Origin: Laccaria trichodermophora
Lineage: Eukaryota; Basidiomycota; Agaricomycetes; Agaricales; Hydnangiaceae
Direction: 5' to 3'
Assembly: GCA_018417955.1 (NCBI GenBank)
Contig: JACTVC010000008.1
Coordinates: 1,510,317-1,574,316 of the forward strand
Length of the DNA stretch: 64,000 bases
In this document: piece after piece, positions 17,061-53,197 of the stretch
Layout of the letters: the number at the start of each line of letters is the position of its first letter
How positions within the stretch are numbered: the stretch's first letter is position 1
Notes under the pieces: model-generated
Told to the model about the DNA's origin: nothing
Databases searched by the model: none
Seen by the model: the letters and a program-made list of their open reading frames with translations, nothing else
Translations under genes and position numbers: made by a program

Positions 17061-17129
17061 TGTTAGGTATATTATGTAATAAAATCCATATGCACAAATA
17101 GACATATATTTGCACAAATCAAGTTAATG

Positions 17130-26365: not shown

Positions 26366-26590
26366 GGGGTACTTGGTGCAGGAAGCTGGGTGTTCCACAT
26401 GAGTACAACCATCTATAGTTTAATACCATCTTTTCCCCAGTGCATGCATACCCATCATACTACTTACTTATATCAGTACAACCATCTAAATTTTTATATA
26501 ATAATGAGGGAAACTGGGTGTTGTTGTTGGAGTGCTTGGTGAGGGAAGCTGGGTGTTGTTGTTGGAGTATTTGGTGAGAGAAGGTGGATG
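26050..26590 (+). repeat. 35-bp minisatellite in ~268-bp higher-order units
   Basis: The unit GGAGTACTTGGTGAGGGAAG plus CTGGGTGTTGTTGTT repeats every 35 bp (for example 26,063 and 26,098). Blocks are separated by a ~110-bp element starting GAGTACAACCATCTATAGTT at 26,133 and again at 26,401. Confidence 0.85.
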
Positions 26591-26639
26591 TTCCTCACAC
26601 TAAAGCATTGGAGAGGACAGCAGGTAAGTTATGTTATAT

Positions 26640-32481: not shown

Positions 32482-34144
32482 TTAAAGTAGTGGGCGTGAG
32501 TTGGACGATTGGTTGAGAGATTATAGTAGGTTGAGCGGGGAAAGTTGCTTGTAAGAGTTTGAGACCATTAAATAAGTAGTGCGGGAGGTCACGTGGTCGC
32601 GACATCAGTCCATATATATCGCACAGGTAATCTACAGGGCAGCATAGCTGCAGGCTTGCCTGTAGACCATCTAGACCATCGAAGCTGCACTTATAAGTAT
32701 GCCTTATTTACTGAATTTGAGTTTGATCAGCAAATTATACAAGTAGTTAGGTAAAGGCAGGGACGTACCGCCACAAAAATGACTGGCCAATGTCTGCGCA
32801 TCCAAAATTTGCTTCAATGACCCTCCAGAATAGTCGACCCTTAATTACTAAGGGGGCATGGCGAAGGAAGGGGTGACTGAGCGGAACTCGACCAAGATCG
32901 CTGGCGATTTGCAGACTCCAACTGTCGCTAATCTCGTGGGCGTTGACACGAGCATCACTCAGAGCTTTCTTGCAAGACTCAATGGTGCATTGAACAAGAG
33001 GTCCAATGAGAGCTTCGAATTGAGAATGATTCAGCTTCTTATTGACGTGCATTGGACCCGAGGTGTCAGCTGTGATGAAAGGAAGATTGATTTCGGTTTG
33101 CGTGGTCGACGACAATTCAATCTTGGCCTTCTCGGCGGCTTCACGAACATGTTGGATTGCCATTCGGTCATTCTTGAGATCAATGCCCGATTCCGATTTG
33201 AACTCGTTGAGAAATGGGATGCCAATTCCACTTGAGGGAGGTTGCACATGTGTAAACATGTGTCTACGAAAATGAATTTATGCACAGTGAGTAAAAAGCA
33301 CCAGAACTAATGCACAAGAGGGGGTACGTACCAACAGAGCGCGCTAGGCTGGGCGCCCTTGAAGCAGAAAAACACGCTAGAAGCCAAAAAAAGCACGCTT
33401 GAAACAAAAAAAGCACTTTATTAAAACACAAAAAGGGCGTGAACGATGATATAACACATACGTGATGAAGACGCAATTCCAGGCGCCCTGGGGTCGAAAT
33501 GGGTGCGCTTCGTTCAATGTAGAATGGACTTGCGCCGCCGGTGAACCGACTACAGTCTGGTAAGATCTGAAGAAAAAGACCGGCTAAAGTCAGATCAAAT
33601 AAACTAGCTAGCGACCTATAGTCTGCAGGTAGTAGTAAACGTCGCAGTCGTAGTGTTCGCGTCGACAAGGCATCCAGTACTCCAGTAGATCAGGAGTGAT
33701 TGAGGTCTGATCTAATCAGCCGACTATAGTCTGGCTGTATGGCGCAGAGAACGACCGACTCAAAGTCTGGTCTGCAAAAACCAGCGACATAAAGTCTGCT
33801 GGCAACCTGTGGTGGGCACGAGTAAGTCACAAGCGCCTGTAAACGTGCTTGAACCTTAATTGAGAACAAGGGACTCTGTCGCTCCGAACGTCTGTCCGAT
33901 GTTGTTGACTGTGGTGGGTGCTGCCAAACACCGTTCGCATTCAAGTTGGGCGTATACTATCTACTGTCCACGTTGTTCCCCTTCTCTCTCCACTTCTCCA
34001 AAGCTAGGAGTCCGGTCCAAAGGTAAGCGCCCCCTCCCACCTTTGTCCACCAACCTACAAGGCCCGGGATCAGACTTTTAGTCGGTCGAAACGCCATCTA
34101 CCTGACTTTGAGTCGGTGGATTGGAACGAGCAGACTGTTAGTCG
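31971..34144. promoter_or_regulatory. Cluster of GACT-N2-4-AGTC dyad motifs, copy 1
   Basis: Consensus CGACT-N2-4-AGTCT in both orientations. Sites at 31,971 (CGACTAAAGTCT), 31,999 (CGACATAAAGTCT), 32,025, 33,547 (CGACTACAGTCT), 33,581 (CGGCTAAAGTCAG), 33,612 (CGACCTATAGTCT), 33,721 (CGACTATAGTCT), 33,756 (CGACTCAAAGTCT), 33,785, 34,072 (AGACTTTTAGTCG), 34,103 and 34,132. They cover a gene A intron and the divergent gene A/gene C region. The same dyad sits in the terminal repeats. Binding of the transposase or of an element-coded regulator is inferred. Confidence 0.75.
32747..33259 (-). pseudogene. Captured fragment of mitochondrial HSP70 (SSC1-type), copy 1
   Basis: The frame contains a segment of the HSP70 ATPase domain typical of the mitochondrial/bacterial DnaK branch: [48 protein letters not shown] and, slightly altered, [20 protein letters not shown] with [16 protein letters not shown]. 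About 105 residues match. The N-terminal ~10 residues and the C-terminal ~55 (from [11 protein letters not shown] on) do not, so the fragment is fused to unrelated DNA. Neither the phosphate-binding loops nor the substrate-binding domain is present, so it cannot be a working chaperone. It lies between genes A and C. The copy in the other arm differs by one residue (His here, Arg there, after MAIQ). Confidence 0.85.
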
Positions 34145-34391
34145 TTCGTTCATGCGGGACGGTCTTGCATTGGTTGCTACCAACATTCCCGCAAGTTGCT
34201 CTATCGTTGTGTTCTCCATCTTCTGTCCTGTCAATCAATCTCTTACCAAGACCTCGTAAGTTATATTCTTCTCTTACACCATTGGCTAAACTATAACTCC
34301 ATTTTAGAAATCATTCTAGATCAGAAACCCTTGCTAGCAGCTAGAAGATATTTTCCACGTCTTCATACGCCTGTTCATCCCAAAAAACACG
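33262..34391. promoter_or_regulatory. Divergent upstream region of gene C
   Basis: It holds nine of the dyad motifs and, at 33,350-33,440, a short run of AAAAAAAGCAC.CT.GAA repeats. No convincing protein. It probably contains the gene C promoter and 5' UTR. Confidence 0.5.
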
Positions 34392-36989
34392 ATGGCTTCC
34401 TCAAGAACGGATCCTTTACTTCATACCTGTAAGTTCCAAGCTAGTGTGGTGTGCACGGCGATTGATTGACGCGGATATGATAGATGGCTCTCCTGACGTC
34501 TTTGGTCGCTATCACTATAACGACGGCAATACGAAATTTGACACTTACGAGCGGTCGGAGGATGGTAAGCGCTGATGCACAAAGTACCATTGGATTGTTT
34601 TCTGAACGAAGCATTTTAGATGAAATAACAGCATACGATGCTTTGGCCATTGCAGAACTGTACGAAGAGTATATCCCACTCGATAACGCGCCTGTCCCCC
34701 CATCGCCCACCATCTCTCCTGGCCAGGCCATCCCCAGGCGGATGATTGTCACTTCGCCTAATGTTGACTGGATGCCATATATCTCCCTTCACGCAAGGGA
34801 TGTTCGTGCCCGCGAAGATGGTCGCTTTGCTTGGGCTGACTTCACCCTTTGCCCTCAGTGGTTTATAGAAAGCCAGTGGCATCTTCCCTTCGTCCGTACA
34901 CGCCCACCAGCGGCGACAATCAAAAGCCACGAGCTGAGTTTCTGTTGGTGGGAAATGAGCGACCACCATTTCATTGAGGCTCGTGGCTCGGCTTTCCACG
35001 ATTTGGGAACGCTTGAACCTGATATTGCAGACGCATTTCGAGCAGAGGCGAAGAAACTTCACTTAGCGTGCCGGTCTGTTCAGCAGCATAAGGATCCTGG
35101 CCGCCTCTTCTATCTCGCCAACAAGACCACCGATGCCGCCCTCCAACTGAAATTCTGCAATTTCACGAGGAGGGACCTTGTCTACCGGATCGCCTGTTTC
35201 CAGCGGCTCTATCTGGAGACTCTCGCCATGTACGAGTGGCACAAAAAGTGGACCTTTCGCCTCAATGACACGACGGGCAAAATATATGAAGTAGATGAGT
35301 CAATTATGGGAGCGATCACCGACAGTCCCGATTGCATAGCAGTGCTCTACCGCGTCGGGGCACCTGCTTGGTATGTCCGGCCTCCAGGCAATATTCCTTG
35401 TGACATGACAATTCGTGCCATCGTGGCACCTGGATGGGATAAGAAGCCGAATTACCGTGGGCGATCGGCGAGCGAGTATGATCCACAGGAGTTCACTTCT
35501 CGGGATTACCCCAACGCCCCTTTTCAGACTGTCATCACTGCATCCCCCCGAAGCGGCGCATATGTTGCAGCATGTCAGCAGTGGCGCGAGGGTCATTTTG
35601 GTCCAATTGTCTCCCAAACCGTGGTGAAGGAGCCTGTGGCCACGGCGGAGTTGATGCAAAGACCTGTTGGTTTCAAAGACTCTCTTGCAACACCTTCTCG
35701 GACGGAGTCGTCGCAAATGCCACGTTCTGGTAGGTTTGTGCTACTTTTCGCAACTACGCATCTAACTTTCTTGTAGAATCTTCCACGCAATCTCTCACAA
35801 CGCCCGCTAGGTCCGAGTTCTCGCGAATGCCACGTTCTGGTAGGCTTTGATTTACACTACTTTTCGCAACTACGTATCTAAACCTCTTGTAGGATCTTCT
35901 ACGGTAAAGCACGAAAAGACTGCGCTTCGTAAGTCCTCTCTTTCGTGAATAATATCAAGTAAACTAAGGGAATGACTCTTAGCTTCCGTGAACACTGCGA
36001 AATTCCGCGAGCCAGAATTGGACTTCGTACCACAGCAATCGCCTGCTTGGAAGCATGCATTGGCTTCGGTGGATACAGACCCTCGTCGCATCATCTCTGA
36101 GCCCTCTACACAAAAGTTTCGGGGATATCAATTCCCCGATCCTTTCCTGTTTATCACCGGTGTGAACCACAGAGCGATGATCTTGGCGTGGTTGATGATG
36201 CGAGGACAGTGGCTCCAATCACTGGTGGATGTTGACTCTGTTCCCCACCTTCCGATGCCCCAGCATTGGCGCAATTTCCTGCACGACTTTGCAAGAGATA
36301 TGCGTTTGCTGCCTTCAAACCCATCTGCAAGCCAAAGAACGACGGTCAGCGGTGGAGTTACGAAGAACAAGGGGGCCAAGCCAATTGCCGCTATGACACA
36401 ACAACAGCGGCGTTCGCATAAGGCCAAGGAGGCACAGGGTTCGATCTTCTCGGGAGTGGTGAAGCTTGCTGGTCGACCAAACATCATTTTTTGGGGTGAT
36501 GTGGCTGTCATGCAAGGGGACTCTGACCTTCTCTCTGCACCCATAATGGCGCAGGTCATCTGGAACGCCTTTGAGCAAAATTTTCGGTATGAAATTCGCC
36601 ACCTTGACCGCCTGCTCTTGCCTGCGGCCTGGGCCTCCGATTCGGCTGCAGGTCTTCGTGAAGATCTGATTCGCCGTGTTTTTCCTGATGACAGTGATGG
36701 CTTACTTGTTGCGGAACGATGGCTAAATCAAGGGCTGGCAGCTGGGAACTGGAGGGATCGTTTGAATTGTGTGGAGGCCTTGCGGCGGTTGATGGTGGGA
36801 TGGCCAGGCGAAGCTGCATGGCGATTGAAGGCACAGTATATTTCTTCGGACACCACACAGACTCGATTTGAAGAGACAGAGCAAATGGTGGTGTGCCTTT
36901 ACTGCCAAACCTTCTTTGATACGTTTGGACGGGCCCCGTGCACACCACATCAAGCACCTTTCCTTAACAATGCATCATCTTCAGCTTAG
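34392..36989 (+). CDS. Gene C of KDZ element: agaricomycete-type uncharacterised protein, copy 1
   Basis: The start is ATG at 34,392 (MASSRTDPLLHT). Introns lie at 34,429-34,483 and 34,565-34,619. The long exon from 34,620 carries EITAYDALAIAELYEEYIPL, then a Trp-rich body (WFIESQWHLPF, CWWEMSDHH), then VLYRVGAPAWYVRPPG. Two small exons ending MPRSG are tandem copies with a 110-bp period (CCACGTTCTG at 35,720 and 35,830), each followed by a near-identical intron. The last exon (about 35,983-36,989) has FITGVNHRAMILAWLMMRGQ, WNAFEQNFRYEIRHLDRLLL and YCQTFFDTFGRAP, ending in TAG. The body resembles a multicopy agaricomycete family of unknown function (segments VGAPAWYVRP, FRYEIRHLDR, WRDRL). 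I assign no activity. Confidence 0.8.
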
Positions 36990-37206
36990 TGGTGGACATG
37001 GACTTTTTATCATGACAGAATATACGTAGGACTTGGTAGTTTTTGTATGGACCGTAGCGGTGTTTTTTTGTTGATGAATCTTGACATGTACGGACGTTTG
37101 GCATGGGAATGGCAGTTATCGGCCGATCACGCTGGTCAGATAATAAAGGTAATGAAGTGATGTTTCATTCCTTCCCTCGCACCCACCCCTCTGAGTCTCC
37201 TTTAAC

Positions 37207-40200
37207 ATGTTCAAGCGTAAACTGGTCAAGGCCTGTCCACAGCTTCCTCAGCAACTTGTTCCATCTGGATCTTTCCAAACACGTAGAGCTTATGGCACGG
37301 GTGATCCTACATCTGAGCCTCGTGCTAACATATATATCCCTGAAGGCCATCTTGTGCAGCATACAGATTCCTTTCAGGAGATGGACCAAGACACTTTCCA
37401 AGCTTTAGCAACAACTGTTAATGTGGATGGAAATTACCAAGGTAAAAAACAACGTCAATTTCAGCGATGGGAGCAGGAAATCCTTCCTGCTCTTATGGAA
37501 CCGTATATGAAACTCTTGAGAGACACAGACTCATTGCGAAATATGCCTGACACCAAATTGGCTCTTGGGTGTACTGGTTGTCATTCTGGAAGACCTTTGA
37601 AAGTTTCATGTGTTTTTTTTGAAAGTATGTTGATTTCTTTTACTGTTTGGTTTCAATCTTTTGAAATTTTTCTTGCAGAAATTGAGACTCTTATGCTCTG
37701 TACTTGCACATCACCAGCTCTTCAACTGCTTCAACAGGGTTTATTTCCTTGTGCACCTCTTTTGCCATCTCTAGCAGTTGACTTGAATATGCTGGAGTTT
37801 GTCAATGAGCTATTTGTCAATACAGCCCCAAATACAACGGCTTGGTGTGAGACCTTGGAGTCTTTTCTTAGCAACAGGAGATACAAGCTTTCAACTCAGG
37901 TCAGTTATTTGCATTTTTCTGTATCTTTCAAATATCTTCATCCACTTCTAGAATAACTTACGGCGACGATTTGGAAATGCCATGCAGTGGTATGCCACCC
38001 TGATTGACAAGAAAAATCACCATCTGGTCAAGTACTTGGACCAATTTAGGCTATCAGTTTCTGATACTGCAGGTATGATCATTTTTTGATTTTTATGGGG
38101 TCTATACTTATGTTTACTCCAGCTGAGGCTCAAGGTTCAGAGTCACCTGAGGGTACTTATTTGTGACCATATCCATGACAATAACCTGACATTGGTCGCA
38201 ATAGATGTGCAAATGAACAGCCCTGTTAGTGAGAATGAACCTCAGGATGCCCCATCGGTTCCAAATACAGATGCCAAAGATCGACCAAGTGAATATTTGC
38301 GCTCCCGTTGCCCACTCTGTTTTGGTGGAAAGGATTGGTGTAAATCAGATGAACTGTGTGTGTCTCTTTCATATTCTTTATTTTTATTCAGTGATGTCTA
38401 TCTAGTGTGGACTTTATTGTTTGCTTGGATGCATGCTTCAAACAAAAATCAAGAAAAGCTCAAGGCAAGGAACCACCTGCACCTCGTCAGCATCCTGATA
38501 CTATCTTTATCTCTCCATCTGATGTCAAAGCAATGGATGATATGGTAGAGAACATTCGTCCACAAGCTAAACCAAAAGGTAAAGATAAGTCTAAGCAAGG
38601 ATCTTCATCAGAGGATGCAGATCATTGTGAACCTGGGATCAAAGTGCCTAACTCTGTGTTGAACTTGTGTGAAGACTCATTCACTGCTGCAGATGAGAAA
38701 AGAGTTAAAGCTAGTACTCAGTTCTTCTCTGACACTGGTCTAATGGCTATGGTTTGTCGACATGACCGGGTTTTATGGCTTGTAAACATGACTTCTGCTG
38801 GTGAAAAGCAGCATTATGCTTTAGTTCTTTTGGAGCGTCTCTTCAATCATTTACCCTCTACTGCTCGAGTGGGTGTACTGTATGATATTGGCTGTCAACT
38901 TCATCGAAGTTGTGTCAAATGGGGCTTTTTGAAAGAATTCTTTGATCGTTTAATCTGGGCAATTTCTGTTTTCCATGCATATGGTCACCAATGGGCTTGC
39001 CAACTCATTTACCATCCAAGAAAATGTATTGGCTTTGGCTTGACTGATGGTGAGGGCTGTGAAAGATTTTGGAGCTCAATCAAGCTCTTAATTCCATCTT
39101 TGCGTGTCAGTGGCTACTATACCCGAATCTATACAATTGATACTCAGGTTAAGCATCTGGATCACAAATCACTCATAGGTCTTGGTGACTGGCTTAGAAA
39201 AAAGTGGAATGCAGCTGTTATGCGTAAAAGTGAGGCTGAAACTGCTCTGGAAAAACTGGAGCAGAAAGATATCACTGGAGCTGTTTTGAGGGAACAGTGG
39301 GCTGCTCAACTTGTGCAACAGACAAAGCCAAGTCCTAGGCAATCAAAAAACTTGGCTGATAAAATAATCCAAGAGATACTGGAGCTAAAGGAAACTATGA
39401 ATGAAATAAAAGCAGAGCTCTATAAATTTGAGATGATGATTGAAACTAGCAAATATGATGATGGCTGGGAGATTTCAGATGTTAGATTGCATCTTGCTGA
39501 CCTCAAGGACAACTATCAAAGAGTGGAAAAATCAATGAAAACTAAACGTACTACTTTGGGAGCTGATGGTCGGTTGAATCTGGAGTGCCTGCTTGGGAAT
39601 AAGTTTCTTCGCTTGCGTGTCAATGCTCTAGCATTAAAACAGAGATTGAGAAATCGGCTACAGCAGCGTAAATTTGAACTTGATAGCTTGGAGAGAGCAT
39701 ATCGAAAAACAACAACTAATAGTGAGTGTCATTGTTGCACTAATTAACAAACCCCAACTTACATGCCTCTATAGCTAAAAAATTGCATGAACATTCAGAG
39801 TCTCAGATCAAGCGAAAAGAGCCAGGGATTCAAAAATTGGCTAAAAAATATAATGACCTCTGTGCTGAATTAGAAAAGATGATTAGAAAGAAAGAAAGTC
39901 CTCGTGGTGCATGTGCACCACACAGAATAGCGACTGAAGGTCTTTTCAAACTGGATGTTGATGATGATATTTGGCAGGATGTGGGGCTGGATGACACAGA
40001 TCTGTCATTTGGAAGTGAAGTGCCCAGATGGCCGGGGGACGAAGATGTACGCAAAGGTATAAAAGCAATGTTGGAACTAGATCGATGCAAGGAAGAATTG
40101 CAACGTCTTTCCTATGAATGTAGTGCAATGCAGGAATGGTTTATGGAGGAATGGCAATGTGTTACGAATGCTATGGCTTGTGAGCAAAACAAAGATGTTC

Positions 40201-40508
40201 TTTACCAACTGGATTTGCATGCATACAATTTGGCACATCTTTGCATTATCTGGCAAGATAAAGTTCGACTAGTTGTTCCATATAAGACAATGAGTCCATG
40301 TTGGGGTCCTACTTTGGAAGAACTGGCACTTGTTAGAAAATTGGAGGTTTCAGAAATGATGGTAGAGAACGATATGGAAAGAGATGAAGAGAATGATAGT
40401 GATGAAGAGGAGGATGAAGAGGAGGATGGTGAGGAGACAGAGTTACTTGAAGCAGTTGAAATGCTAGCACTTTCAGATGAATTTCATAACAGCTATGGAA
40501 ATGTATGA
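37207..40508 (+). CDS. KDZ (Kyakuja-Dileera-Zisupton) transposase, copy 1
   Basis: DDE-type transposase expected to cut and join the element ends. The start is ATG at 37,207 (MFKRKLVKACPQLPQQLVPS). First exons are 37,207-37,624, 37,679-37,899 and 37,952 onward. The N-terminal third has the Cys-rich zinc-binding region of this superfamily (LGCTGCHSGRPLKVSC, LMLCTCTSP) and RCPLCFGG. The catalytic core has VCLDACFKQKSRK, DTGLMAMVCRHDRVLWL, VGVLYDIGCQLH, FHAYGHQWACQLIYHPRKC and GFGLTDGEGCERFWSSIK. The Asp residues in the first blocks and the Glu in DGEGCERFW fit the catalytic acidic set, none missing. The C-terminal third is coiled-coil-like and ends in an acidic tail (DSDEEEDEEEDGEE). The final exon starts about 39,775. 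It looks intact. Confidence 0.92.
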
Positions 40509-40910
40509 CTGTGGATTATAGGGGCTCAATATATATACAGTGTTCTGTACATATATTTCAGGTACAAATGTATAACCATGCTCAACATATATTCCAAGAA
40601 TATATACAATAAATGTACTTTGTATATACATTCTGTATATATGTAAAGAATTGTAAATACAAGGAGAAATATTTTATAATATGCAGGAAAGATATACACA
40701 ACAAAGATATGTAATATAATGTGTGTACATGCACAAAGAAAAGATGAACTCTAGATGGTTGTACTGATATAAGTAGTAGTATGATGGGTATGCATGCACT
40801 GAGGAAAATATTATATCAAACTTTAGATGGTTGTACTAATGTGGATCACCCAGCTTCCCTCACCAAGTACTCCAACAACCAACTTACCAGCTTCCCTCAC
40901 CAAGTACTCC
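40509..40910 (+). repeat. Right subterminal region of KDZ copy 1
   Basis: AT-rich ATATATAC words (40,530-40,720) like the left subterminal array, then 35-bp minisatellite units in reverse orientation leading into the right terminal repeat. Confidence 0.7.
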
Positions 40911-41782
40911 AACAACAACACCCAGCTTCCCTCACCAAGTACTCCAACAGCAATGTCCAGCTTTCCTCACCAAATATTCCAACAACAACACCCAGCTTCC
41001 CTCACCAAGCACTCCAACAACAACACCCAGTTTCCCTCATTATTATATAAAAATTTAGATGGTTGTACTGATATAAGTAAGTAGTATGATGGGTATGCAT
41101 GCACTGAGGAAAAGATGGTATTAAACTATAGATGGTTGTACTCATGTGGAACACCCAGCTTCCCTCACCAAGTACTCCAACAACAACACACAGCTTCCCT
41201 CATCAAGTACTCCAACAACAACACCCAGCTTTCTTCTCCACTGTTCTCCATTGCTTGAGTGAGAGGAATACTCAGCTTTCATGACATATCAGTAAAGAAA
41301 CCTCTCATACATATGCTACAAACAGTCAAGGAAGGGTGGCTAAAACCCTAAAAAATAATAGGTAAATTACCTAGAATATATGTCCCCCATCCCAAAAAAT
41401 ATCACAAGTTTTTTTAGGAACTGGGACCCCAAACACCCCTAGTGGCTGAAGAAATATATCCTTGGTCAATCCCAGCTGCAAAATATATCCTAAGTCCATC
41501 CCAGACCAGAAATATATTTCTGCAGTGTGACAGTCACAATTCAGGGTCCAGGCATAAGAAATATATTTGGAGTCCATCTCAGTGAAGAAATATATTTTGG
41601 GGTGTGTGACACACTAGAAATATATTTGGTGTGACTTTGAATGTCAAAATATATTTAGGTAAAAGTGGAGATATACAAGCCCCAGAATATATACAATATA
41701 GATATACATACTGACATTTAGTCCCGTAGTATTCATGGAGTTTGCAAGACTAAAAGTCAGTTGGTAGTGGGTGACTGAAGTG
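40911..41782 (-). repeat. Long terminal inverted repeat of KDZ copy 1, right
   Basis: Mirror of 25,494-26,365, ending GTGGGTGACTGAAGTG at 41,782, next to GTCACATG. Confidence 0.9.
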
Positions 41783-41790
41783 GTCACATG
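41783..41790. repeat. 8-bp target site duplication of the KDZ element, right (GTCACATG)
   Basis: Partner of 25,486-25,493. Confidence 0.92.
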
Positions 41791-43288
41791 ATCAATTATG
41801 AAAAATGGTGAAAATGAAAGTTGTAGCCATACACTGTAGCTTCTTGAGTCCATGTGAGCTATATTCTGAACTGCTTCCATTGTCAAGATATATGTAAAAG
41901 ACTTTTCCAAGTGTGACATTGTTTTTTATTGCTGGTAATGATGCTGGGGTACTGCAAGATTCAAATAGAAAATGGTACTTGTTTGTGATAAAAAGGTACC
42001 TAGAAAAACAGAAACAAGCAGAAGATAATAGAAATAGATTACTATTGCCCTTGCAAAAGAGGACTTGTTCCTGCCATGCTTGCAATGGCCTCTTACACAA
42101 GTTGAAATGAAGGTAGAAAGCCAAGTCAGCTTGAAGACTGAAGAATAATCATGTTCAAGCAAGGCTAGTACAGGGACAGTTACAGCTAATACAAGTATAG
42201 CTAGTACAATGACGGTTACAGCTAACAATGATGTTTAGGTAATGCTCCACTCAGTGAATTTGTTTAGGTTTAGATCCAGAGGTATAGTACCTGACAGCCA
42301 TAAATTTTGTGGTCAATACAGCCAATCAACATATAAGAAAGGATGTCTCATGACAAACAGAGACAGTTTATCATCAATAAAAGAGGTATATAAAATAGAA
42401 CAAGCAAGACCCAGCACTAATCATACTTTAGCTTTTGAAAGTTGATCAACAAGATGGTTGAAAGGCCAATCAACATGAAAAGCACAGGGTCAGTTGACAG
42501 AATATATCATGTGTCTCACACAAATTTGAAGTTTTAATGGGCGCTACTAAATACAGCCTCATTTTGACAGAATAGGTATAGACAGAAGGGTTGTTAGGAC
42601 CAAGGAATATTTGTTCAAGTGGCGAATAGGGATCAAGCATGTTCCCATGCATTAGCAACCCTTGCATAAAATTGATGAGCAATTGTACACATATCCACAA
42701 GTTTTATCACTTAGGCATTCACATATACTTTCGACATGGATGCATTCTACAACAACAATGAAGCCAGTGAGTAGAGCATATTTACTGCCATTGTGACTGA
42801 AATCCAAAAATCCATAGAAGATCTTCTTGGGCACGCATTGAGAAAGGCCCAAAGGTCTGTCAACTATTGACCTTCAATGAGGTTAGCAGCACCTACCTTA
42901 GAAGTTCGATGAGTCTACTAATTGATGATATGTAGAAAGACAGGATGGCACCATATGCATTTGTGCAATCCATGGAGAAACTTCATTGCTGGAAGCTTGT
43001 AAGGATTGAACAGAACATGCAAGAACAAGAGGAAGTTGTCCTACGTATCCAAGGAATCATGTGACAAGAGCATACTGCCAATTAAAAGGCCATTTGAAAT
43101 GTATGTCAATGATACTAAAGTCTGTGGTGCCTTCTCAACATATATATACATAGAGAGTCACAAGGCCGGAAATATCTATGTCAAAGCATTATGCTTACAG
43201 GATTCAGTTCAGACATAATGAAGAAAGCCATTGAGAATATACATTACATCCATGGGTTATTCAATCAGGAATTCATGCAAGGAGAACT
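41783..43288 (+). repeat. Right flank of KDZ copy 1, duplicated in inverted orientation
   Basis: Exact or near-exact reverse complement of 46,899-48,404. It begins as the right half of the 18.7-kb-type repeat and ends in the interior of a gene fragment whose continuation exists only in the other copy. Several small frames are shared between the copies, but none is recognised as a gene. Confidence 0.9.
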
Positions 43289-43325
43289 AAGACTAAAAGT
43301 CAGTTGGTAGTGGGTGACTGAAGTG
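43289..43325 (+). mobile_element. 37-nt orphan terminus of the KDZ element at the palindrome breakpoint
   Basis: AAGACTAAAAGTCAGTTGGT to GGTGACTGAAGTG is identical to the last 37 bp of the element (41,746-41,782). It is joined directly to base 43,288, where the left palindrome arm ends. No element interior precedes it and no GTCACATG follows. Confidence 0.9.
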
Positions 43326-44099
43326 CCTTGGAACTGGTCACTTACTGCTACAGCTTGTGAGGTAAATCAACTGGCAATGTGATCTTGCCTCTGGCTTGGT
43401 TTGAACCACCAACCTGCTGACAAGCTGTAATCTTTTATTTAGTGTAAACTGAATGCCTATTCAATGACTCTGATAAACTCAAATTACTTGCTAAACTTCT
43501 GTATCACAAGACCCTGTCTATCAGGGCAGGTCTTATCAGATCTGCACTGTTATCTCTTCCTGCATCTGTATCCAACCTCTCATGGATTTCCATAGCTTTG
43601 AATATCTGGAGCAATCTCAAATCTTGCTAAAATACACCCACATCTAGTCTCTAACCCTCATTTTTCCTCTCTTTGGACTGAGCTGTGACCAAGATCACAG
43701 CTGGGTCTTCTTTCCATTGTCATTCCAGCTTGCCATATGACTTTCATTGACAGCTTCCACATTCAATGCACATATAATCCATTACACCACCCAAATTTGA
43801 AATACTACTAGAATAAAATTAGAAAGAAATTGGGTGTTGATGATGGGGTAATGTTTACATGGTCTGTGCACAGTTCCCAATATAGTAATCACTGAAATTA
43901 CAGCCAAAAAGTCAGAAAAAAATAAGAAAAGAAATTCACATGCTGGAAATGGTCATTAATAATGTTAATATATTGTTTGCCTGGTCTGTGCATATTTCCA
44001 AATATGGTAATTAGTGAAAATATGGCCAGAAAATTAATGTCTGCCTCAAGCTGATATGGTTTCATCTAATAGGCACATGATAAATGCATCATATAGTTG

Positions 44100-44292
44100 T
44101 TCATATTGTATATCACATGATACAGTCATATGATATAACATGAAATATGATCAATCATGTGATATACTAGTCATGTGACAATGTCATGTGATGTATCATG
44201 TGGTCTGATTATGTGATATAGATCATGTGATATGTCATGTGGTCTGATCATGTGACATATCATATGATGTATCATGTGATACAGTCACATAA
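44100..44292. repeat. CATGTGAT-type short palindromic repeat array
   Basis: At least ten occurrences of TCATGTGAT or one-base variants spaced 10-20 bp, for example ATCATGTGATATACTAG and TCATGTGGTCTGATCATGTG. It includes CATGTGAC, the reverse complement of the KDZ target duplication. Confidence 0.8.
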
Positions 44293-45834
44293 TAGCCAGC
44301 AAAGATTTTGGCACTTATCTAGTATTTACACCAGAATAGTGTGGCTACTACAATTCCAAAATAAAGTAAGTATTGCATTTCCACATGAAAAATTGAAGAG
44401 AAAGAAAAAAAATAATAGAGCAAAGTCAATAAAGCTAGAAAATCAGAAAAATAAAATAAAAATAATAAAGTAATGTTTAAAATATTGGGGTACAATATAC
44501 AGGGTCTGTGCACATTTTCCAATATGATAATCTACATAAATATAGGCAGAAAAGTAGAATAAAAATTCAAATGATATGTGATAATTTTGATGGACTGTTT
44601 ACTTGGTCTGTGCATATTTCCAAATAAAGTAAATAATGGAAATATATCCAATTAGGGCCAAAAGAGGATATTAATAGACTATTGTCAGGAATATTGAAAT
44701 ATCATATACATGGTTTATGTGCATTTTCTAATATAGTAATTGATACAAATATACTGTAAGAATCAGAAAAGAAAAGAGAAAAAAAAGACAGACATACTAT
44801 TAACTGTTGTTGACAATGTGGGTGCATGGTGGACATGACCTGTGCATATTTCCAAATAGGGTAATTTGTGCAAATATAGCCAGAAAATTGCAATAAAATG
44901 AGAGTAGCATTGGGGGAAATGTAGATGGTAATTACTGGTGGTCATAATATTGCAGAGCTGATTTCAGAGTCCATTTTGCATTTTTGAATGAGAATGTTAC
45001 TATTTTAAATGAAAATCATTTATAAAATATGGTAAAAATGACAACAAATAGGACTTCTTGTTGGGTACTGTTGTCAAGGTCTAAAATCCATATCTAAAAA
45101 AGAAAATTCAAATATTTCTAATAGAGACATCAGAATTCTGGAGTGTTCTAGCCATTTCTGCAGAAATAGGTGGGGCACAATAAAGTACTGGCAGTCATGA
45201 TGGTGTTAAATTTAATATGTCATTATAGTCAACAAACACAAATACATCACATATACATTTACATGAAACATCAGACTCTGACAATCCTCAGAACTCTCCA
45301 GTGCTCAGGAGCATACCTCTATGGGAGAGAGAAAATATAGCTAGCATAGTAAATGTAACAATCCCCAGAACATCTTTAGTTTTCAGAAACATAGGTTTAC
45401 TGCAGTGAAGAATATGGCTTGCACATCAGCAAATATTTACCTCTGGTAATTTGCATGAATAATAGACAACAGTAATGATTCAGTTGGTAAGGCTAATCTA
45501 TTGTAGGCAATTATCAATATAAACTCAATATAAGAGCAGTCAATAAAAACCTTTATTATCTGATGAAGCAGAATTTTGAGGCTATAACTATATAACAAAT
45601 AGCTGAATACCACTAGATACAGTTGCATGCAATATATAATCTGATGTTTCTATAATAAAAATACAATATAAAAGTTAAAGGGCAAGTTTAGGACCAAAAT
45701 TATCTTTATAATAAATTTTGTAGAAAAGTTGAATCCAGAAGATAAAAGTTTGAATGTCAGAAATTTTTGAAGTTTCTTTTTTGAAACTAGGACCCCAGAT
45801 ACTCTGTGACACTGGCAGGAAATCTTTTGCCTGT

Positions 45835-46065
45835 GTGTCATGGCTAAAACATTTCCGAGCAGTGTGACATGGCTCAAACATTTTTCAGCAGTGTGACATG
45901 GCTCAAACATTTCTTAGCAGTGTGACATGACCAAAAGATTTTTCAGCAGTGGGACATAGCTAAAACATTTCTGACTAGTCTGAAACACTTCAAATATTTC
46001 CTACCACTCTAACATGCTTCAAACATTTCTGACCACTTTCAGATGGCTAGGATATTTTTCAATGC
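45835..46065 (-). repeat. 29-bp minisatellite, about 7 decaying units
   Basis: AGCAGTGTGACATGGCTCAA plus ACATTTTTC recurs at 29-30-bp steps (GTGTGACATGG at 45,862, 45,891 and 45,920), degrading towards 46,060. Confidence 0.8.
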
Positions 46066-46211
46066 ATTATATCAACCCAAATATTGAAGGTCAAACATTT
46101 TTGCCCAATGCAATAATATATTTTCCTCCAGAGGCAAAAAAAATAAACGGCCAAGGAACCTATTAGCCTGGATATATACCTATATGTTTCAAGGCTAATA
46201 GCTTGTTCAAG

Positions 46212-46227
46212 GTGGGTGACTGAAGTG
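46212..46227 (+). mobile_element. 16-nt second orphan terminus of the KDZ element
   Basis: GTGGGTGACTGAAGTG equals the last 16 bp of the element, in the same orientation as 43,289-43,325. The flanking sequence is unrelated. Confidence 0.65.
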
Positions 46228-46441
46228 CATAATTAGCCCACATTCACAACGTGAATCATATGTGTAGTCTAGCCATAGACCATACATTTCAATCAATATA
46301 CATCCTTCTAACCTTGTCATGCATTTCTACATCCTCATCCTTGCTATATCCTGTCTTTCTCTTTAGGGTCTGACTGATGTGATGTACTTCCTGTCCACTC
46401 ATTTGTCATGAAATAGTTTCATTCTGGTCACCAAAAGTATT

Positions 46442-46996
46442 TTAGTAAAGCTTGTGTGGCAATAAAATTTTACTCACTTTGGTAGTGCTGTTGTCTAAAA
46501 GCATAATTGCTCTTAGCACAATAAGCATTTTGAATTTCTTGGCTTTTAGTGGTACAACCATAAATGAAGCTTGAATTTCCAAAACATCTCCCCTCTGAAT
46601 ACATCCAGGATTGATATCTATATATCTATAACCATTGTTATAAGTCATTCTTCCAAAGAAGTAGAAATATACTCACTTGATTTTGTTGTCCTTCTTTACA
46701 GCCTCATAATACTCTACAACATTCTCTTGAATATGAATGAAGTCATTTGATAATGCATTTGTCAATATATCATCTGGATCAATAGCATGACTGAATTGGA
46801 TTGGCATCTCTCCATTCATGTCACTCTGTCTGGTGAAGTAGCAGTTTGATATGTTGATAGCATCAAACTGGCCGAATCTTCCAGGTGTCCAAGCCTCGAG
46901 TTCTCCTTGCATGAATTCCTGATTGAATAACCCATGGATGTAATGTATATTCTCAATGGCTTTCTTCATTATGTCTGAACTGAATCCTGTAAGCAT
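46442..46996 (-). pseudogene. Fragment of an agaricomycete multicopy protein gene
   Basis: Two exon-like pieces. The first, 46,996-46,673, has HYIHGLFNQEFMQGELEAW, DAINISNCYFTRQSDMNGE and DPDDILTNALSNDFIHIQEN. A short intron (GTGAGTAT start) leads to 46,648-46,442, with RGDVLEIQASFMVVPLKAKK and FKMLIVLRAIMLLDNS. The motif order GDVLEIQ-SF-VVPLK-KM-VLR-I-LLD is common in uncharacterised proteins of agaricomycete genomes, so this is likely a real gene or its remnant. I could not find complete 5' or 3' ends. In the left arm the same gene is cut at 43,288, inside the first piece. Confidence 0.55.
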
Positions 46997-48404
46997 AATG
47001 CTTTGACATAGATATTTCCGGCCTTGTGACTCTCTATGTATATATATGTTGAGAAGGCACCACAGACTTTAGTATCATTGACATACATTTCAAATGGCCT
47101 TTTAATTGGCAGTATGCTCTTGTCACATGATTCCTTGGATACGTAGGACAACTTCCTCTTGTTCTTGCATGTTCTGTTCAATCCTTACAAGCTTCCAGCA
47201 ATGAAGTTTCTCCATGGATTGCACAAATGCATATGGTGCCATCCTGTCTTTCTACATATCATCAATTAGTAGACTCATCGAACTTCTAAGGTAGGTGCTG
47301 CTAACCTCATTGAAGGTCAATAGTTGACAGACCTTTGGGCCTTTCTCAATGCGTGCCCAAGAAGATCTTCTATGGATTTTTGGATTTCAGTCACAATGGC
47401 AGTAAATATGCTCTACTCACTGGCTTCATTGTTGTTGTAGAATGCATCCATGTCGAAAGTATATGTGAATGCCTAAGTGATAAAACTTGTGGATATGTGT
47501 ACAATTGCTCATCAATTTTATGCAAGGGTTGCTAATGCATGGGAACATGCTTGATCCCTATTCGCCACTTGAACAAATATTCCTTGGTCCTAACAACCCT
47601 TCTGTCTATACCTATTCTGTCAAAATGAGGCTGTATTTAGTAGCGCCCATTAAAACTTCAAATTTGTGTGAGACACATGATATATTCTGTCAACTGACCC
47701 TGTGCTTTTCATGTTGATTGGCCTTTCAACCATCTTGTTGATCAACTTTCAAAAGCTAAAGTATGATTAGTGCTGGGTCTTGCTTGTTCTATTTTATATA
47801 CCTCTTTTATTGATGATAAACTGTCTCTGTTTGTCATGAGACATCCTTTCTTATATGTTGATTGGCTGTATTGACCACAAAATTTATGGCTGTCAGGTAC
47901 TATACCTCTGGATCTAAACCTAAACAAATTCACTGAGTGGAGCATTACCTAAACATCATTGTTAGCTGTAACCGTCATTGTACTAGCTATACTTGTATTA
48001 GCTGTAACTGTCCCTGTACTAGCCTTGCTTGAACATGATTATTCTTCAGTCTTCAAGCTGACTTGGCTTTCTACCTTCATTTCAACTTGTGTAAGAGGCC
48101 ATTGCAAGCATGGCAGGAACAAGTCCTCTTTTGCAAGGGCAATAGTAATCTATTTCTATTATCTTCTGCTTGTTTCTGTTTTTCTAGGTACCTTTTTATC
48201 ACAAACAAGTACCATTTTCTATTTGAATCTTGCAGTACCCCAGCATCATTACCAGCAATAAAAAACAATGTCACACTTGGAAAAGTCTTTTACATATATC
48301 TTGACAATGGAAGCAGTTCAGAATATAGCTCACATGGACTCAAGAAGCTACAGTGTATGGCTACAACTTTCATTTTCACCATTTTTCATAATTGATCATG
48401 TGAC
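46899..48404 (-). repeat. Flank of KDZ copy 2, right palindrome arm start
   Basis: Mirror of 41,783-43,288 (coordinates sum to 90,187). It ends with CATGTGAC at 48,397-48,404, the inverted target duplication. Here the gene fragment continues uninterrupted into 46,898, so this copy is probably the original. Confidence 0.9.
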
Positions 48405-49276
48405 CACTTCAGTCACCCACTACCAACTGACTTTTAGTCTTGCAAACTCCATGAATACTACGGGACTAAATGTCAGTATGTATATCTATATTGTATATAT
48501 TCTGGGGCTTGTATATCTCCACTTTTACCTAAATATATTTTGACATTCAAAGTCACACCAAATATATTTCTAGTGTGTCACACACCCCAAAATATATTTC
48601 TTCACTGAGATGGACTCCAAATATATTTCTTATGCCTGGACCCTGAATTGTGACTGTCACACTGCAGAAATATATTTCTGGTCTGGGATGGACTTAGGAT
48701 ATATTTTGCAGCTGGGATTGACCAAGGATATATTTCTTCAGCCACTAGGGGTGTTTGGGGTCCCAGTTCCTAAAAAAACTTGTGATATTTTTTGGGATGG
48801 GGGACATATATTCTAGGTAATTTACCTATTATTTTTTAGGGTTTTAGCCACCCTTCCTTGACTGTTTGTAGCATATGTATGAGAGGTTTCTTTACTGATA
48901 TGTCATGAAAGCTGAGTATTCCTCTCACTCAAGCAATGGAGAACAGTGGAGAAGAAAGCTGGGTGTTGTTGTTGGAGTACTTGATGAGGGAAGCTGTGTG
49001 TTGTTGTTGGAGTACTTGGTGAGGGAAGCTGGGTGTTCCACATGAGTACAACCATCTATAGTTTAATACCATCTTTTCCTCAGTGCATGCATACCCATCA
49101 TACTACTTACTTATATCAGTACAACCATCTAAATTTTTATATAATAATGAGGGAAACTGGGTGTTGTTGTTGGAGTGCTTGGTGAGGGAAGCTGGGTGTT
49201 GTTGTTGGAATATTTGGTGAGGAAAGCTGGACATTGCTGTTGGAGTACTTGGTGAGGGAAGCTGGGTGTTGTTGTT
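48405..49276 (+). repeat. Long terminal inverted repeat of KDZ copy 2, inner end
   Basis: Same sequence as 25,494-26,365 in the same orientation. It starts CACTTCAGTCACCCACTACC right after CATGTGAC. Confidence 0.9.
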
Positions 49277-49678
49277 GGAGTACTTGGTGAGGGAAGCTGG
49301 TAAGTTGGTTGTTGGAGTACTTGGTGAGGGAAGCTGGGTGATCCACATTAGTACAACCATCTAAAGTTTGATATAATATTTTCCTCAGTGCATGCATACC
49401 CATCATACTACTACTTATATCAGTACAACCATCTAGAGTTCATCTTTTCTTTGTGCATGTACACACATTATATTACATATCTTTGTTGTGTATATCTTTC
49501 CTGCATATTATAAAATATTTCTCCTTGTATTTACAATTCTTTACATATATACAGAATGTATATACAAAGTACATTTATTGTATATATTCTTGGAATATAT
49601 GTTGAGCATGGTTATACATTTGTACCTGAAATATATGTACAGAACACTGTATATATATTGAGCCCCTATAATCCACAG
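49277..49678 (-). repeat. Subterminal region of KDZ copy 2 beyond the transposase
   Basis: Mirror of 40,509-40,910: minisatellite units and ATATATAC words. Confidence 0.7.
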
Positions 49679-52600
49679 TCATACATTTCCATAGCTGTTA
49701 TGAAATTCATCTGAAAGTGCTAGCATTTCAACTGCTTCAAGTAACTCTGTCTCCTCACCATCCTCCTCTTCATCCTCCTCTTCATCACTATCATTCTCTT
49801 CATCTCTTTCCATATCGTTCTCTACCATCATTTCTGAAACCTCCAATTTTCTAACAAGTGCCAGTTCTTCCAAAGTAGGACCCCAACATGGACTCATTGT
49901 CTTATATGGAACAACTAGTCGAACTTTATCTTGCCAGATAATGCAAAGATGTGCCAAATTGTATGCATGCAAATCCAGTTGGTAAAGAACATCTTTGTTT
50001 TGCTCACAAGCCATAGCATTCGTAACACATTGCCATTCCTCCATAAACCATTCCTGCATTGCACTACATTCATAGGAAAGACGTTGCAATTCTTCCTTGC
50101 ATCGATCTAGTTCCAACATTGCTTTTATACCTTTGCGTACATCTTCGTCCCCCGGCCATCTGGGCACTTCACTTCCAAATGACAGATCTGTGTCATCCAG
50201 CCCCACATCCTGCCAAATATCATCATCAACATCCAGTTTGAAAAGACCTTCAGTCGCTATTCTGTGTGGTGCACATGCACCACGAGGACTTTCTTTCTTT
50301 CTAATCATCTTTTCTAATTCAGCACAGAGGTCATTATATTTTTTAGCCAATTTTTGAATCCCTGGCTCTTTTCGCTTGATCTGAGACTCTGAATGTTCAT
50401 GCAATTTTTTAGCTATAGAGGCATGTAAGTTGGGGTTTGTTAATTAGTGCAACAATGACACTCACTATTAGTTGTTGTTTTTCGATATGCTCTCTCCAAG
50501 CTATCAAGTTCAAATTTACGCTGCTGTAGCCGATTTCTCAATCTCTGTTTTAATGCTAGAGCATTGACACGCAAGCGAAGAAACTTATTCCCAAGCAGGC
50601 ACTCCAGATTCAACCGACCATCAGCTCCCAAAGTAGTACGTTTAGTTTTCATTGATTTTTCCACTCTTTGATAGTTGTCCTTGAGGTCAGCAAGATGCAA
50701 TCTAACATCTGAAATCTCCCAGCCATCATCATATTTGCTAGTTTCAATCATCATCTCAAATTTATAGAGCTCTGCTTTTATTTCATTCATAGTTTCCTTT
50801 AGCTCCAGTATCTCTTGGATTATTTTATCAGCCAAGTTTTTTGATTGCCTAGGACTTGGCTTTGTCTGTTGCACAAGTTGAGCAGCCCACTGTTCCCTCA
50901 AAACAGCTCCAGTGATATCTTTCTGCTCCAGTTTTTCCAGAGCAGTTTCAGCCTCACTTTTACGCATAACAGCTGCATTCCACTTTTTTCTAAGCCAGTC
51001 ACCAAGACCTATGAGTGATTTGTGATCCAGATGCTTAACCTGAGTATCAATTGTATAGATTCGGGTATAGTAGCCACTGACACGCAAAGATGGAATTAAG
51101 AGCTTGATTGAGCTCCAAAATCTTTCACAGCCCTCACCATCAGTCAAGCCAAAGCCAATACATTTTCTTGGATGGTAAATGAGTTGGCAAGCCCATTGGT
51201 GACCATATGCATGGAAAACAGAAATTGCCCAGATTAAACGATCAAAGAATTCTTTCAAAAAGCCCCATTTGACACAACTTCGATGAAGTTGACAGCCAAT
51301 ATCATACAGTACACCCACTCGAGCAGTAGAGGGTAAATGATTGAAGAGACGCTCCAAAAGAACTAAAGCATAATGCTGCTTTTCACCAGCAGAAGTCATG
51401 TTTACAAGCCATAAAACCCGGTCATGTCGACAAACCATAGCCATTAGACCAGTGTCAGAGAAGAACTGAGTACTAGCTTTAACTCTTTTCTCATCTGCAG
51501 CAGTGAATGAGTCTTCACACAAGTTCAACACAGAGTTAGGCACTTTGATCCCAGGTTCACAATGATCTGCATCCTCTGATGAAGATCCTTGCTTAGACTT
51601 ATCTTTACCTTTTGGTTTAGCTTGTGGACGAATGTTCTCTACCATATCATCCATTGCTTTGACATCAGATGGAGAGATAAAGATAGTATCAGGATGCTGA
51701 CGAGGTGCAGGTGGTTCCTTGCCTTGAGCTTTTCTTGATTTTTGTTTGAAGCATGCATCCAAGCAAACAATAAAGTCCACACTAGATAGACATCACTGAA
51801 TAAAAATAAAGAATATGAAAGAGACACACACAGTTCATCTGATTTACACCAATCCTTTCCACCAAAACAGAGTGGGCAACGGGAGCGCAAATATTCACTT
51901 GGTCGATCTTTGGCATCTGTATTTGGAACCGATGGGGCATCCTGAGGTTCATTCTCACTAACAGGGCTGTTCATTTGCACATCTATTGCGACCAATGTCA
52001 GGTTATTGTCATGGATATGGTCACAAATAAGTACCCTCAGGTGACTCTGAACCTTGAGCCTCAGCTGGAGTAAACATAAGTATAGACCCCATAAAAATCA
52101 AAAAATGATCATACCTGCAGTATCAGAAACTGATAGCCTAAATTGGTCCAAGTACTTGACCAGATGGTGATTTTTCTTGTCAATCAGGGTGGCATACCAC
52201 TGCATGGCATTTCCAAATCGTCGCCGTAAGTTATTCTAGAAGTGGATGAAGATATTTGAAAGATACAGAAAAATGCAAATAACTGACCTGAGTTGAAAGC
52301 TTGTATCTCCTGTTGCTAAGAAAAGACTCCAAGGTCTCACACCAAGCCGTTGTATTTGGGGCTGTATTGACAAATAGCTCATTGACAAACTCCAGCATAT
52401 TCAAGTCAACTGCTAGAGATGGCAAAAGAGGTGCACAAGGAAATAAACCCTGTTGAAGCAGTTGAAGAGCTGGTGATGTGCAAGTACAGAGCATAAGAGT
52501 CTCAATTTCTGCAAGAAAAATTTCAAAAGATTGAAACCAAACAGTAAAAGAAATCAACATACTTTCAAAAAAAACACATGAAACTTTCAAAGGTCTTCCA

Positions 52601-52980
52601 GAATGACAACCAGTACACCCAAGAGCCAATTTGGTGTCAGGCATATTTCGCAATGAGTCTGTGTCTCTCAAGAGTTTCATATACGGTTCCATAAGAGCAG
52701 GAAGGATTTCCTGCTCCCATCGCTGAAATTGACGTTGTTTTTTACCTTGGTAATTTCCATCCACATTAACAGTTGTTGCTAAAGCTTGGAAAGTGTCTTG
52801 GTCCATCTCCTGAAAGGAATCTGTATGCTGCACAAGATGGCCTTCAGGGATATATATGTTAGCACGAGGCTCAGATGTAGGATCACCCGTGCCATAAGCT
52901 CTACGTGTTTGGAAAGATCCAGATGGAACAAGTTGCTGAGGAAGCTGTGGACAGGCCTTGACCAGTTTACGCTTGAACAT
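49679..52980 (-). CDS. KDZ transposase, copy 2
   Basis: Mirror of the gene at 37,207-40,508, with the same predicted exons and the same protein in every segment I compared, including DTGLMAMVCRHD, YDIGC and DGEGCERFWS. The start is ATG at 52,980-52,978 and the C-terminal exon runs to 49,679. Two intact transposase copies within 15 kb could supply enzyme for each other and for non-autonomous relatives. Confidence 0.92.
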
Positions 52981-53197
52981 GTTAAAGGAGACTCAGAGGG
53001 GTGGGTGCGAGGGAAGGAATGAAACATCACTTCATTACCTTTATTATCTGACCAGCGTGATCGGCCGATAACTGCCATTCCCATGCCAAACGTCCGTACA
53101 TGTCAAGATTCATCAACAAAAAAACACCGCTACGGTCCATACAAAAACTACCAAGTCCTACGTATATTCTGTCATGATAAAAAGTCCATGTCCACCA

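What the first reader, a model, noticed from the sequence alone, without database searches (positions are those of the whole stretch)
43260..43340. The palindrome breakpoint is joined to a 37-nt terminus of the transposon
The left arm ends at 43,288 inside a gene fragment that continues intact in the right arm (46,898). The very next bases are the last 37 bp of the KDZ element, with no 8-bp duplication. A transposon end exactly at a duplication breakpoint is what alternative transposition (reversed or sister-chromatid ends, as known for maize Ac/Ds) followed by repair would leave. That would suggest KDZ transposase can make large inverted duplications.
Basis: partly seen in the sequence, partly recalled or inferred. 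Interest (0 to 1): 0.85.

Follow-up and report, generated by a model that had tools for sequence, protein, structure and literature searches.

The report
Botched repair between two sibling transposons
Two near-identical jumping genes lying head to head in a mushroom genome appear to have exchanged arms during a faulty DNA repair, leaving a 37-letter stub of one of them joined to a 1.5-kb copy of its neighbour's surroundings; it is a well-preserved example of how transposons rearrange chromosomes, not proof of a new transposase activity.

Summary
The junction is real: the left arm stops at 43,288 and the next 37 nt are an exact KDZ terminus. But the terminal base faces away from the breakpoint and has a target duplication: CCTTGGA (43326-43332) recurs beside a KDZ end on contig C39. 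The window is the last 64 kb of its contig; C39 overlaps the right KDZ (14.65 kb, 0 mismatches, 12 small indels) and holds the other half of the element that this KDZ had interrupted. So the 'palindrome' ends at KDZ termini: two inverted sibling KDZs 5 kb apart plus a 1,506-bp flank copy, not a large inverted duplication. I infer double-strand-break repair: pairing with the inverted sibling, copying 1.5 kb past its end, blunt joining to the stub. Sister-end transposition with re-replication remains a rival. Of 76 KDZ ends surveyed only this one is a bare stub, but two other KDZ insertions (C4, C18) have ends in the same orientation with inverted matching TSDs, and their predicted empty sites exist elsewhere: KDZ-associated inversion looks recurrent. 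No reads could be checked; the C76-C39 link is inferred.

The parts
25486..25493 (+). TSD t2 (GTCACATG), left side of KDZ_L
   Evidence: empty site contiguous in L035 (C1), 400 of 400 nt at 98.75%
25494..41782 (+). KDZ_L, 16,289-bp KDZ element with 896-nt terminal inverted repeats (99.6% alike), t2 on both sides
   Evidence: KDZ transposase domain PF18758 E=1.4e-63
37195..37956 (+). ORF (stop to stop) with CxC1 cysteine cluster associated with KDZ transposases
   Evidence: PF18802, E=1.2e-8
38395..39747 (+). ORF (stop to stop) with KDZ transposase domain
   Evidence: closest named relatives among the 120 hits listed: Laccaria amethystina 83% over 70% of the query, L. bicolor 74% over 61%
41783..41790 (+). 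TSD t2 (GTCACATG), right side of KDZ_L
41783..43288 (+). extra (copied, truncated) 1,506-bp flank of KDZ; identical to the reverse complement of 46899-48404
43288..43289 (.). blunt junction: copied flank joined to the cut interior of a KDZ end; 0-bp microhomology, no inserted base
43289..43325 (+). 37-nt stub: exact terminal 37 nt of a KDZ ('KDZ-B'); outermost base is 43325
   Evidence: the only orphan among 76 surveyed ends
43326..43332 (+). TSD t1 (CCTTGGA) of KDZ-B; partner copy on C39:15371-15377 (reverse complement)
   Evidence: target without KDZ at this place in 16 of 16 other copies fetched
43326..46227 (+). right half of an 'A/B' element (about 1.8-kb terminal repeats inferred from paired inverted matches; terminus GGGTGACTGAAGTG) that KDZ-B interrupted; left half on C39, matched at 15378-15576, 16173-16318 and 16778-17595
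46228..46235 (+). TSD of the A/B element (CATAATTA); partner TAATTATG on C39:17596-17603
   Evidence: joined family C site contiguous in 4 of 6 copies, no match in the other 2
46228..48404 (-). ancestral, uninterrupted flank (family C sequence plus about 320 bp of another repeat); 46899-48404 is the part that was copied
48397..48404 (-). TSD t2 (CATGTGAC on the + strand) at the inner end of KDZ_R
48405..64000 (-). KDZ_R, inverted KDZ cut off by the contig end; inferred to continue on C39 to 15370, where it is followed by t1, not t2
   Evidence: C39:1-14651 vs 49343-64000: 0 mismatches, 12 small indels of 15 bases in all
33150..33150 (.). private base change of KDZ_L (derived C>T on the + strand, in a CpG)
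   Evidence: 2 of 2 other alignable copies carry C
58149..58174 (.). 25-bp tandem duplication of KDZ_R, shared with C39 (approximate limits)
   Evidence: absent from KDZ_L and from 3 of 3 other copies

Best explanation
Shown by sequence: the A/B right half keeps only 37 nt of a KDZ, with a 7-bp TSD whose partner lies on C39. On C39 the A/B left half is attached to a KDZ that matches KDZ_R. KDZ_R's other end carries the flank and TSD (t2) of KDZ_L's site. KDZ_L has t2 on both sides and an extra 1,506 bp of that flank, joined blunt to the 37-nt stub. Reconstructed: a KDZ copy ('KDZ-B') sat, inverted, 5,079 bp from its sibling KDZ-A, inside the A/B element. Inferred: KDZ-B suffered a double-strand break, or was cut out and incompletely refilled, near one end. 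The long broken end paired with the inverted sibling. Synthesis ran off the sibling's end through its TSD and 1,506 bp of flank, then stopped, and end joining sealed it to the 37-nt stub. A crossover in that event, or a separate inversion between the two KDZ arms, swapped the outer flanks. So one end used homology and the other end joining; this is the gap-filling/ectopic-recombination behaviour known for other TIR transposons.
For: TSD t1 is split between stub and C39, and the joined flanks are contiguous across the join in 16 of 16 A/B copies fetched, 13 of them from the very start of the 200-nt left flank. The A/B element's own TSD is split the same way, independent evidence that C76 and C39 are two halves of one locus. 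C39's KDZ and KDZ_R share the derived 25-bp duplication that KDZ_L and three other copies lack, and differ from each other by indels only. Outer arm limits coincide with KDZ termini. Flank copies are 1506/1506 identical. The breakpoint is inside family C sequence that is intact in 6 of 6 other copies. The two KDZs differ by one substitution and one 25-bp duplication, one derived in each, over the stretch they share; in a 1,351-nt stretch the next copy (C77) differs from KDZ_L at 16 sites against 1 for KDZ_R: recent siblings. Two other KDZ insertions have their ends in the same orientation (C4, C18), so exchange between KDZ copies seems to recur here.
Against: The C76-C39 link rests on overlap and TSDs, not on reads. 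The five C39-only deletions lie at 2.7-5.3 kb of C39, not at its very end, and could be real differences. The base shared by KDZ_R and C39 is ancestral, so only the duplication ties them. At the termini C77 is closer to KDZ_L (4 mismatches in 1,537) than in the 1,351-nt stretch. Exchanged flanks with virtually identical copies is also what sister-end ('hybrid element') transposition predicts; the siblings are too alike for chimerism to be seen. Two steps (local insertion, then break repair) are needed where the rival needs fewer. There is no microhomology at the junction.
Confidence: 0.5

Rival explanations
1. Alternative transposition with re-replication: one KDZ end from each sister chromatid inserted together at t1 just ahead of a replication fork; one fork re-copied the KDZ, t2 and 1,506 bp of flank, the other only 37 nt, both aborted, and the two ends were joined (a 'composite insertion' as in maize Ac/fAc), with later or simultaneous inversion.
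For: One event gives the new TSD, the near-identity of the two KDZs, the captured flank and the blunt internal junction. The long tract (about 17.8 kb: 16,289 + 1,506) lies inside the 4,781-18,866 bp range reported for single forks in maize; of the three end-joined maize insertions described, one had no microhomology (PMC4270019 sections 6, 8, 9, 11). Identical copies are the stated outcome of hybrid element insertion (PMC2775673 passages).
Against: A 37-nt tract is far below that range. The simple product keeps the two A/B halves as outer flanks of the insertion; the assembly shows the outer flanks exchanged, so an extra inversion is needed. No report of KDZ doing this was seen in the listings (44 and 49 listed 15 of 27 and 10 of 21 papers).
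Confidence: 0.2
2. Assembly artefact: a chimeric or fold-back read, or collapsed haplotypes, created the junction near the contig end.
For: The structure lies at the end of contig C76, inside near-identical arms of about 17.8 kb; the last 800 bases of C76 carry seven small indels against both KDZ_L and C39.
Against: A fold-back copy would repeat KDZ_L, but KDZ_R carries a 25-bp duplication that KDZ_L lacks and lacks KDZ_L's private base. The junction is about 20.7 kb inside the contig. Two TSDs fit the reconstructed locus.
Confidence: 0.1
3. One reading: the KDZ transposase directly produced a large inverted duplication, the 37 nt being the reacted end at the breakpoint.
For: Two near-identical arms of about 16 kb in the window.
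Against: Outer arm limits coincide with KDZ termini; the stub's terminal base is still in its target with a TSD; the junction exposes the interior of the element.
Confidence: 0.04

Closest known systems
Galileo inversions in Drosophila buzzatii (ectopic recombination between long-TIR transposons; PMC2775673, passages seen)
   Same: Two inverted copies of one long-TIR element flank an inverted segment; exchanged TSDs (7 bp in both cases for one side); empty sites known.
   Different: Here the inverted segment is only 5 kb, one element is flanked by its own TSD on both sides, a 1.5-kb flank has been captured, and a 37-nt stub is left; chimerism cannot be tested because the copies are nearly identical.
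Gap-filling capture by TIR transposons (Pack-TIRs; PMC8277862, passages seen)
   Same: A broken element is refilled by copying nearby non-element sequence and then closed.
   Different: Pack-TIR duplicated regions have a median of 224 bp and breakpoints skewed to the element interior; here 1,506 bp of flank and its KDZ are involved, and the break is 37 nt from the end.
Composite insertions by reversed-ends transposition and re-replication in maize Ac/fAc (PMC4270019, sections 6, 8, 9, 11 read)
   Same: TSD-bounded element end, whole element, flank copy and an internal end-joined junction.
   Different: One tract here is only 37 nt; outer flanks are exchanged; no second donor element is demonstrated.
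Kyakuja-type KDZ transposons of Agaricomycetes (PMC12730594, passages seen)
   Same: KDZ transposase, 7-bp TSDs, CA...TG termini, Laccaria among the hosts.
   Different: The two Laccaria bicolor Kyakuja families described there have no TIRs and carry a TET/JBP gene; this element has 896-nt TIRs, and no TET/JBP domain was found in the eight ORFs scanned of ten listed over 25494-46300. Whether it is Kyakuja or Zisupton was not tested by a tree.

Membership tests
KDZ (Kyakuja-Dileera-Zisupton) DNA transposon | KDZ transposase domain | tested here: met
   PF18758, E=1.4e-63 in 38395-39747; CxC1 beside it
KDZ (Kyakuja-Dileera-Zisupton) DNA transposon | 7- or 8-bp target site duplications | tested here: met
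   13 ordinary pairs among 76 ends: 9 of 7 bp, 4 of 8 bp; 41 of 76 ends have no partner in the set
KDZ (Kyakuja-Dileera-Zisupton) DNA transposon | defined termini (CA...TG, inverted repeats) | tested here: met
   CACTTCAG...CTGAAGTG, 896-nt TIRs 99.6% alike
TE-mediated inversion by ectopic recombination | two inverted homologous copies, both with exchanged TSDs | tested here: inconclusive
   KDZ_R has t2 inside and t1 outside (exchanged), but KDZ_L has t2 on both sides and the other t1 sits on the stub
TE-mediated inversion by ectopic recombination | chimeric elements | tested here: inconclusive
   Only one substitution and one 25-bp duplication separate the copies, one derived in each
Alternative transposition / composite insertion | element termini joined to target with fresh TSD | tested here: met
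   t1 at the stub and at the outer end of KDZ_R, but equally expected from an ordinary earlier insertion
Alternative transposition / composite insertion | reacted terminus directly at the new breakpoint (plain alternative transposition without re-replication) | tested here: not met
   Breakpoint 43288|43289 meets the cut inner side of the stub
Alternative transposition / composite insertion | donor ends from two elements or sisters; reciprocal product | not testable with these tools
   No reads, no sibling strains
Pack-TIR / gap filling | filler copied from elsewhere next to a piece of a broken element | tested here: met
   1,506-bp flank copy adjoins the 37-nt stub
Pack-TIR / gap filling | microhomology at a switch point (common, not universal: 67.6% of cases in PMC8277862) | tested here: not met
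   0 bp at 43288|43289

The most novel reading that the evidence does not exclude
The KDZ transposase itself made this by sister-end transposition into a site just ahead of a replication fork, followed by re-replication and end joining, and the same activity made the split, inverted KDZ insertions on C4 and C18: a fungal counterpart of maize composite insertions and, as far as the searches made here show, the first case for KDZ elements.
Probability: 0.2. Interest if true: 0.65.

Novelty: new member of a known kind. Interest (0 to 1): 0.42.

Why it matters
It gives an unusually complete molecular record of one transposon-driven rearrangement: original targets, TSDs, a nested element's TSD, exchanged flanks and the end-joining scar can all be read. 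With two further split KDZ insertions in the same genome (C4, C18), it makes KDZ elements candidates for a recurrent source of inversions in mushrooms, and offers a locus where ectopic recombination and alternative transposition could be told apart by typing strains.

Tried and rejected
Rejected: (1) chance match or unrelated dispersed repeat: the other 75 ends found with up to 3 mismatches run on into the KDZ terminal repeat (74 pass a 12-nt test; the 75th, C17:9851, fails it but resumes the repeat after a small deletion, judged by eye). (2) 37 nt as a normal part of the A/B element: 16 of 16 other copies fetched lack it at that place. (3) Large inverted duplication. (4) Fold-back copy of KDZ_L: KDZ_R differs by a duplication and a base.

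Limits of the survey: it needs the full 37-mer with up to 3 mismatches, so shorter stubs and more distant KDZ subfamilies were not seen. A genome-wide TSD table for all 249 exact GTGGGTGACTGAAGTG ends (126 + 123) could not be finished because letters were blanked part-way. Of the 76 ends, 35 fall into TSD matches (26 ordinary, 6 inverted-type, 2 split between C24 and C49, and 1 that repeats t2); 41 have no partner in the set. The C77 element with exact 37-mer ends (1104201/1131653) has unlike TSDs and was not resolved. Papers: searches gave listings of which most papers were not opened, among them two that mention KDZ often (PMC12477816, PMC12810828).

Full report
THE OBSERVATION. The window is C76:1510317-1574316, the last 64,000 bases of a 1,574,316-base contig in a 59.0-Mb, 77-contig genome. 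The inverted repeat is real: 32004-43288 against 46899-58183 and 26984-32038 against 58174-63228, 100% complementary. The left arm ends at 43288, and 43289-43325 is letter for letter the terminal 37 nt of the KDZ at 25494-41782. The join is blunt: the copied flank would continue CGAGGC, the KDZ interior reads GTTTGC before the 37-mer, and neither overlaps.

THE 37 NT ARE A KDZ END STILL IN ITS TARGET. Sequence from 43326 on belongs to a repeat (here called A/B: about 1.8-kb terminal repeats, terminus GGGTGACTGAAGTG like the KDZ's). In 16 of 16 other A/B copies fetched, the sequence runs through this place as GATCTCA|CCTTGCAAC or close variants; one of them (L070) has a different KDZ insertion about 80 bp away. 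Contig C39 holds a KDZ end at 15370 followed by TCCAAGGTGAGATCC, the reverse complement of the missing A/B half. Stub and C39 share the 7-bp TSD CCTTGGA. Among 76 KDZ ends with up to 3 mismatches, 13 ordinary pairs carry TSDs of 7 bp (9) or 8 bp (4), so a 7-bp TSD is normal here; 76 random 8-mers give 0.225 matching pairs on average and at most 2 in 400 trials.

C39 IS PROBABLY THE CONTINUATION OF C76. C39:1-14651 matches 49343-64000 with 0 mismatches and 12 gaps of 15 bases in all. Seven of the gaps are peculiar to the last 800 bases of C76, as expected of a poorly polished contig end; the other five are deletions peculiar to C39 at 2.7-5.3 kb, which may be errors or real differences. C39 and KDZ_R share a derived 25-bp tandem duplication absent from KDZ_L and from three other copies; they also share a base that KDZ_L has changed, but that state is ancestral. 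Independently, the A/B element's right terminus at 46227 is followed by CATAATTA and its other terminus at C39:17595 by TAATTATG, the reverse complement: one TSD split over two contigs. The joined family C site is contiguous in 4 of 6 copies; the other two gave no match. The link is strong but inferred, not read-based.

WHAT THE LOCUS LOOKS LIKE. From left to right: Y (window left of 25486) - t2 - KDZ_L - t2 - 1,506-bp flank copy // 37 nt - t1 - A/B right half - CATAATTA - family C - flank - t2 - KDZ_R - t1 - A/B left half (C39). KDZ_L has t2 = GTCACATG on both sides, and its empty site is contiguous in L035 over 400 of 400 nt at 98.75%. KDZ_R has t2 on one side and t1 on the other. Family C is uninterrupted across 46898/46899 in 6 of 6 copies, so the right side is ancestral and the left flank is the copy; the two flank copies are identical over 1,506 bp. 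Beyond the outer KDZ ends the sequences are unrelated (14 of 60 matches; one 77-nt 80.5% hit elsewhere in Y). So apart from a second KDZ, only 1.5 kb of flank was duplicated.

AGE AND RELATION OF THE TWO KDZS. They differ by one base (derived in KDZ_L; 2 of 2 other alignable copies have the older base) and one 25-bp tandem duplication (derived in KDZ_R; absent from 3 of 3 other copies). The closest other copy found (C77) differs from KDZ_L at 16 of 1,351 sites, against 1 of 1,351 for KDZ_R; at one terminus C77 is closer, 4 mismatches in 1,537. KDZ_L and KDZ_R are recent siblings, so whether the elements are chimeric cannot be tested.

MECHANISM. Reconstructed from sequence: a KDZ once inserted, inverted, at t1, 5,079 bp from KDZ-A; loss of all but 37 nt of it on one side; exchange of outer flanks; capture of 1,506 bp of flank; blunt joining. 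Inferred: a double-strand break in, or excision of, the t1 KDZ, homologous pairing of one end with the inverted sibling, synthesis past the sibling's end, and end joining to the stub, with a crossover in the same event or a separate inversion. This follows the logic of gap filling by TIR transposons (PMC8277862, passages) and of Galileo inversions with exchanged TSDs (PMC2775673, passages). The main rival is sister-end transposition with re-replication, modelled on maize Ac/fAc (PMC4270019, outline with abstract and four sections): it explains the near-identity and the single TSD with fewer steps, but needs one tract of only 37 nt (reported single-fork tracts are 4,781-18,866 bp, with one larger, unresolved allele) and an extra inversion.

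IS IT RECURRENT? Of 76 ends, only this one is a bare stub. But two other KDZ insertions have their two ends in the same orientation with matching inverted 7-bp TSDs: C4:856654/874087 and C18:295935/323087. With the flanks joined as the empty site would read, 4 of 4 other matching places cross the C4 join (81-86% identity) and 6 of 7 cross the C18 join (69-75% identity). So each is most simply one insertion whose halves were later inverted relative to each other, here without a short stub at either end. Three loci in this genome thus show KDZ-associated inversion; how the C4 and C18 cases arose was not worked out. No report of KDZ-driven inversion was seen in the listings (9 of 9 papers; 15 of 27; 10 of 21); in PMC12510652 (passages only) inversions are ascribed to pheromone genes, with KDZ elements merely present. 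The library holds open-licence papers only.

VERDICT. The assembly has not been checked against reads.

Noticed in passing
C4:856654 and C4:874087; C18:295935 and C18:323087 (L081, L084, L029, L030): Two further KDZ insertions whose ends lie in the same orientation with matching inverted 7-bp TSDs; predicted empty sites are contiguous at 4 and 6 other places.
   Followed up: partly
window 43326-46227 and C39:15371-17595: A second, many-copy element type with about 1.8-kb terminal repeats shares the KDZ terminus GGGTGACTGAAGTG and makes 7-8-bp TSDs; it may be a non-autonomous KDZ relative.
   Followed up: partly
window 32747-33277 (-): An ORF inside the KDZ matches Hsp70 (PF00012, E=3.8e-27), perhaps captured host sequence; the one base change that distinguishes the two KDZs (33150) lies inside it.
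   Followed up: no
C77:1104201-1131689 (L017, L018): A pair of KDZ ends with exact 37-mers about 27.5 kb apart has unlike TSDs (GCTAATGC / GATCAAAT), another possible recombinant or nested pair.
   Followed up: no
C24:8704 and C49:130004 (L102, L104): Matching 7-bp TSDs on two contigs near their ends suggest C49 and C24 are neighbours separated by a KDZ.
   Followed up: no
window 26004-26622 and 40786-41253: The KDZ terminal regions contain 35-nt tandem repeats.
   Followed up: no
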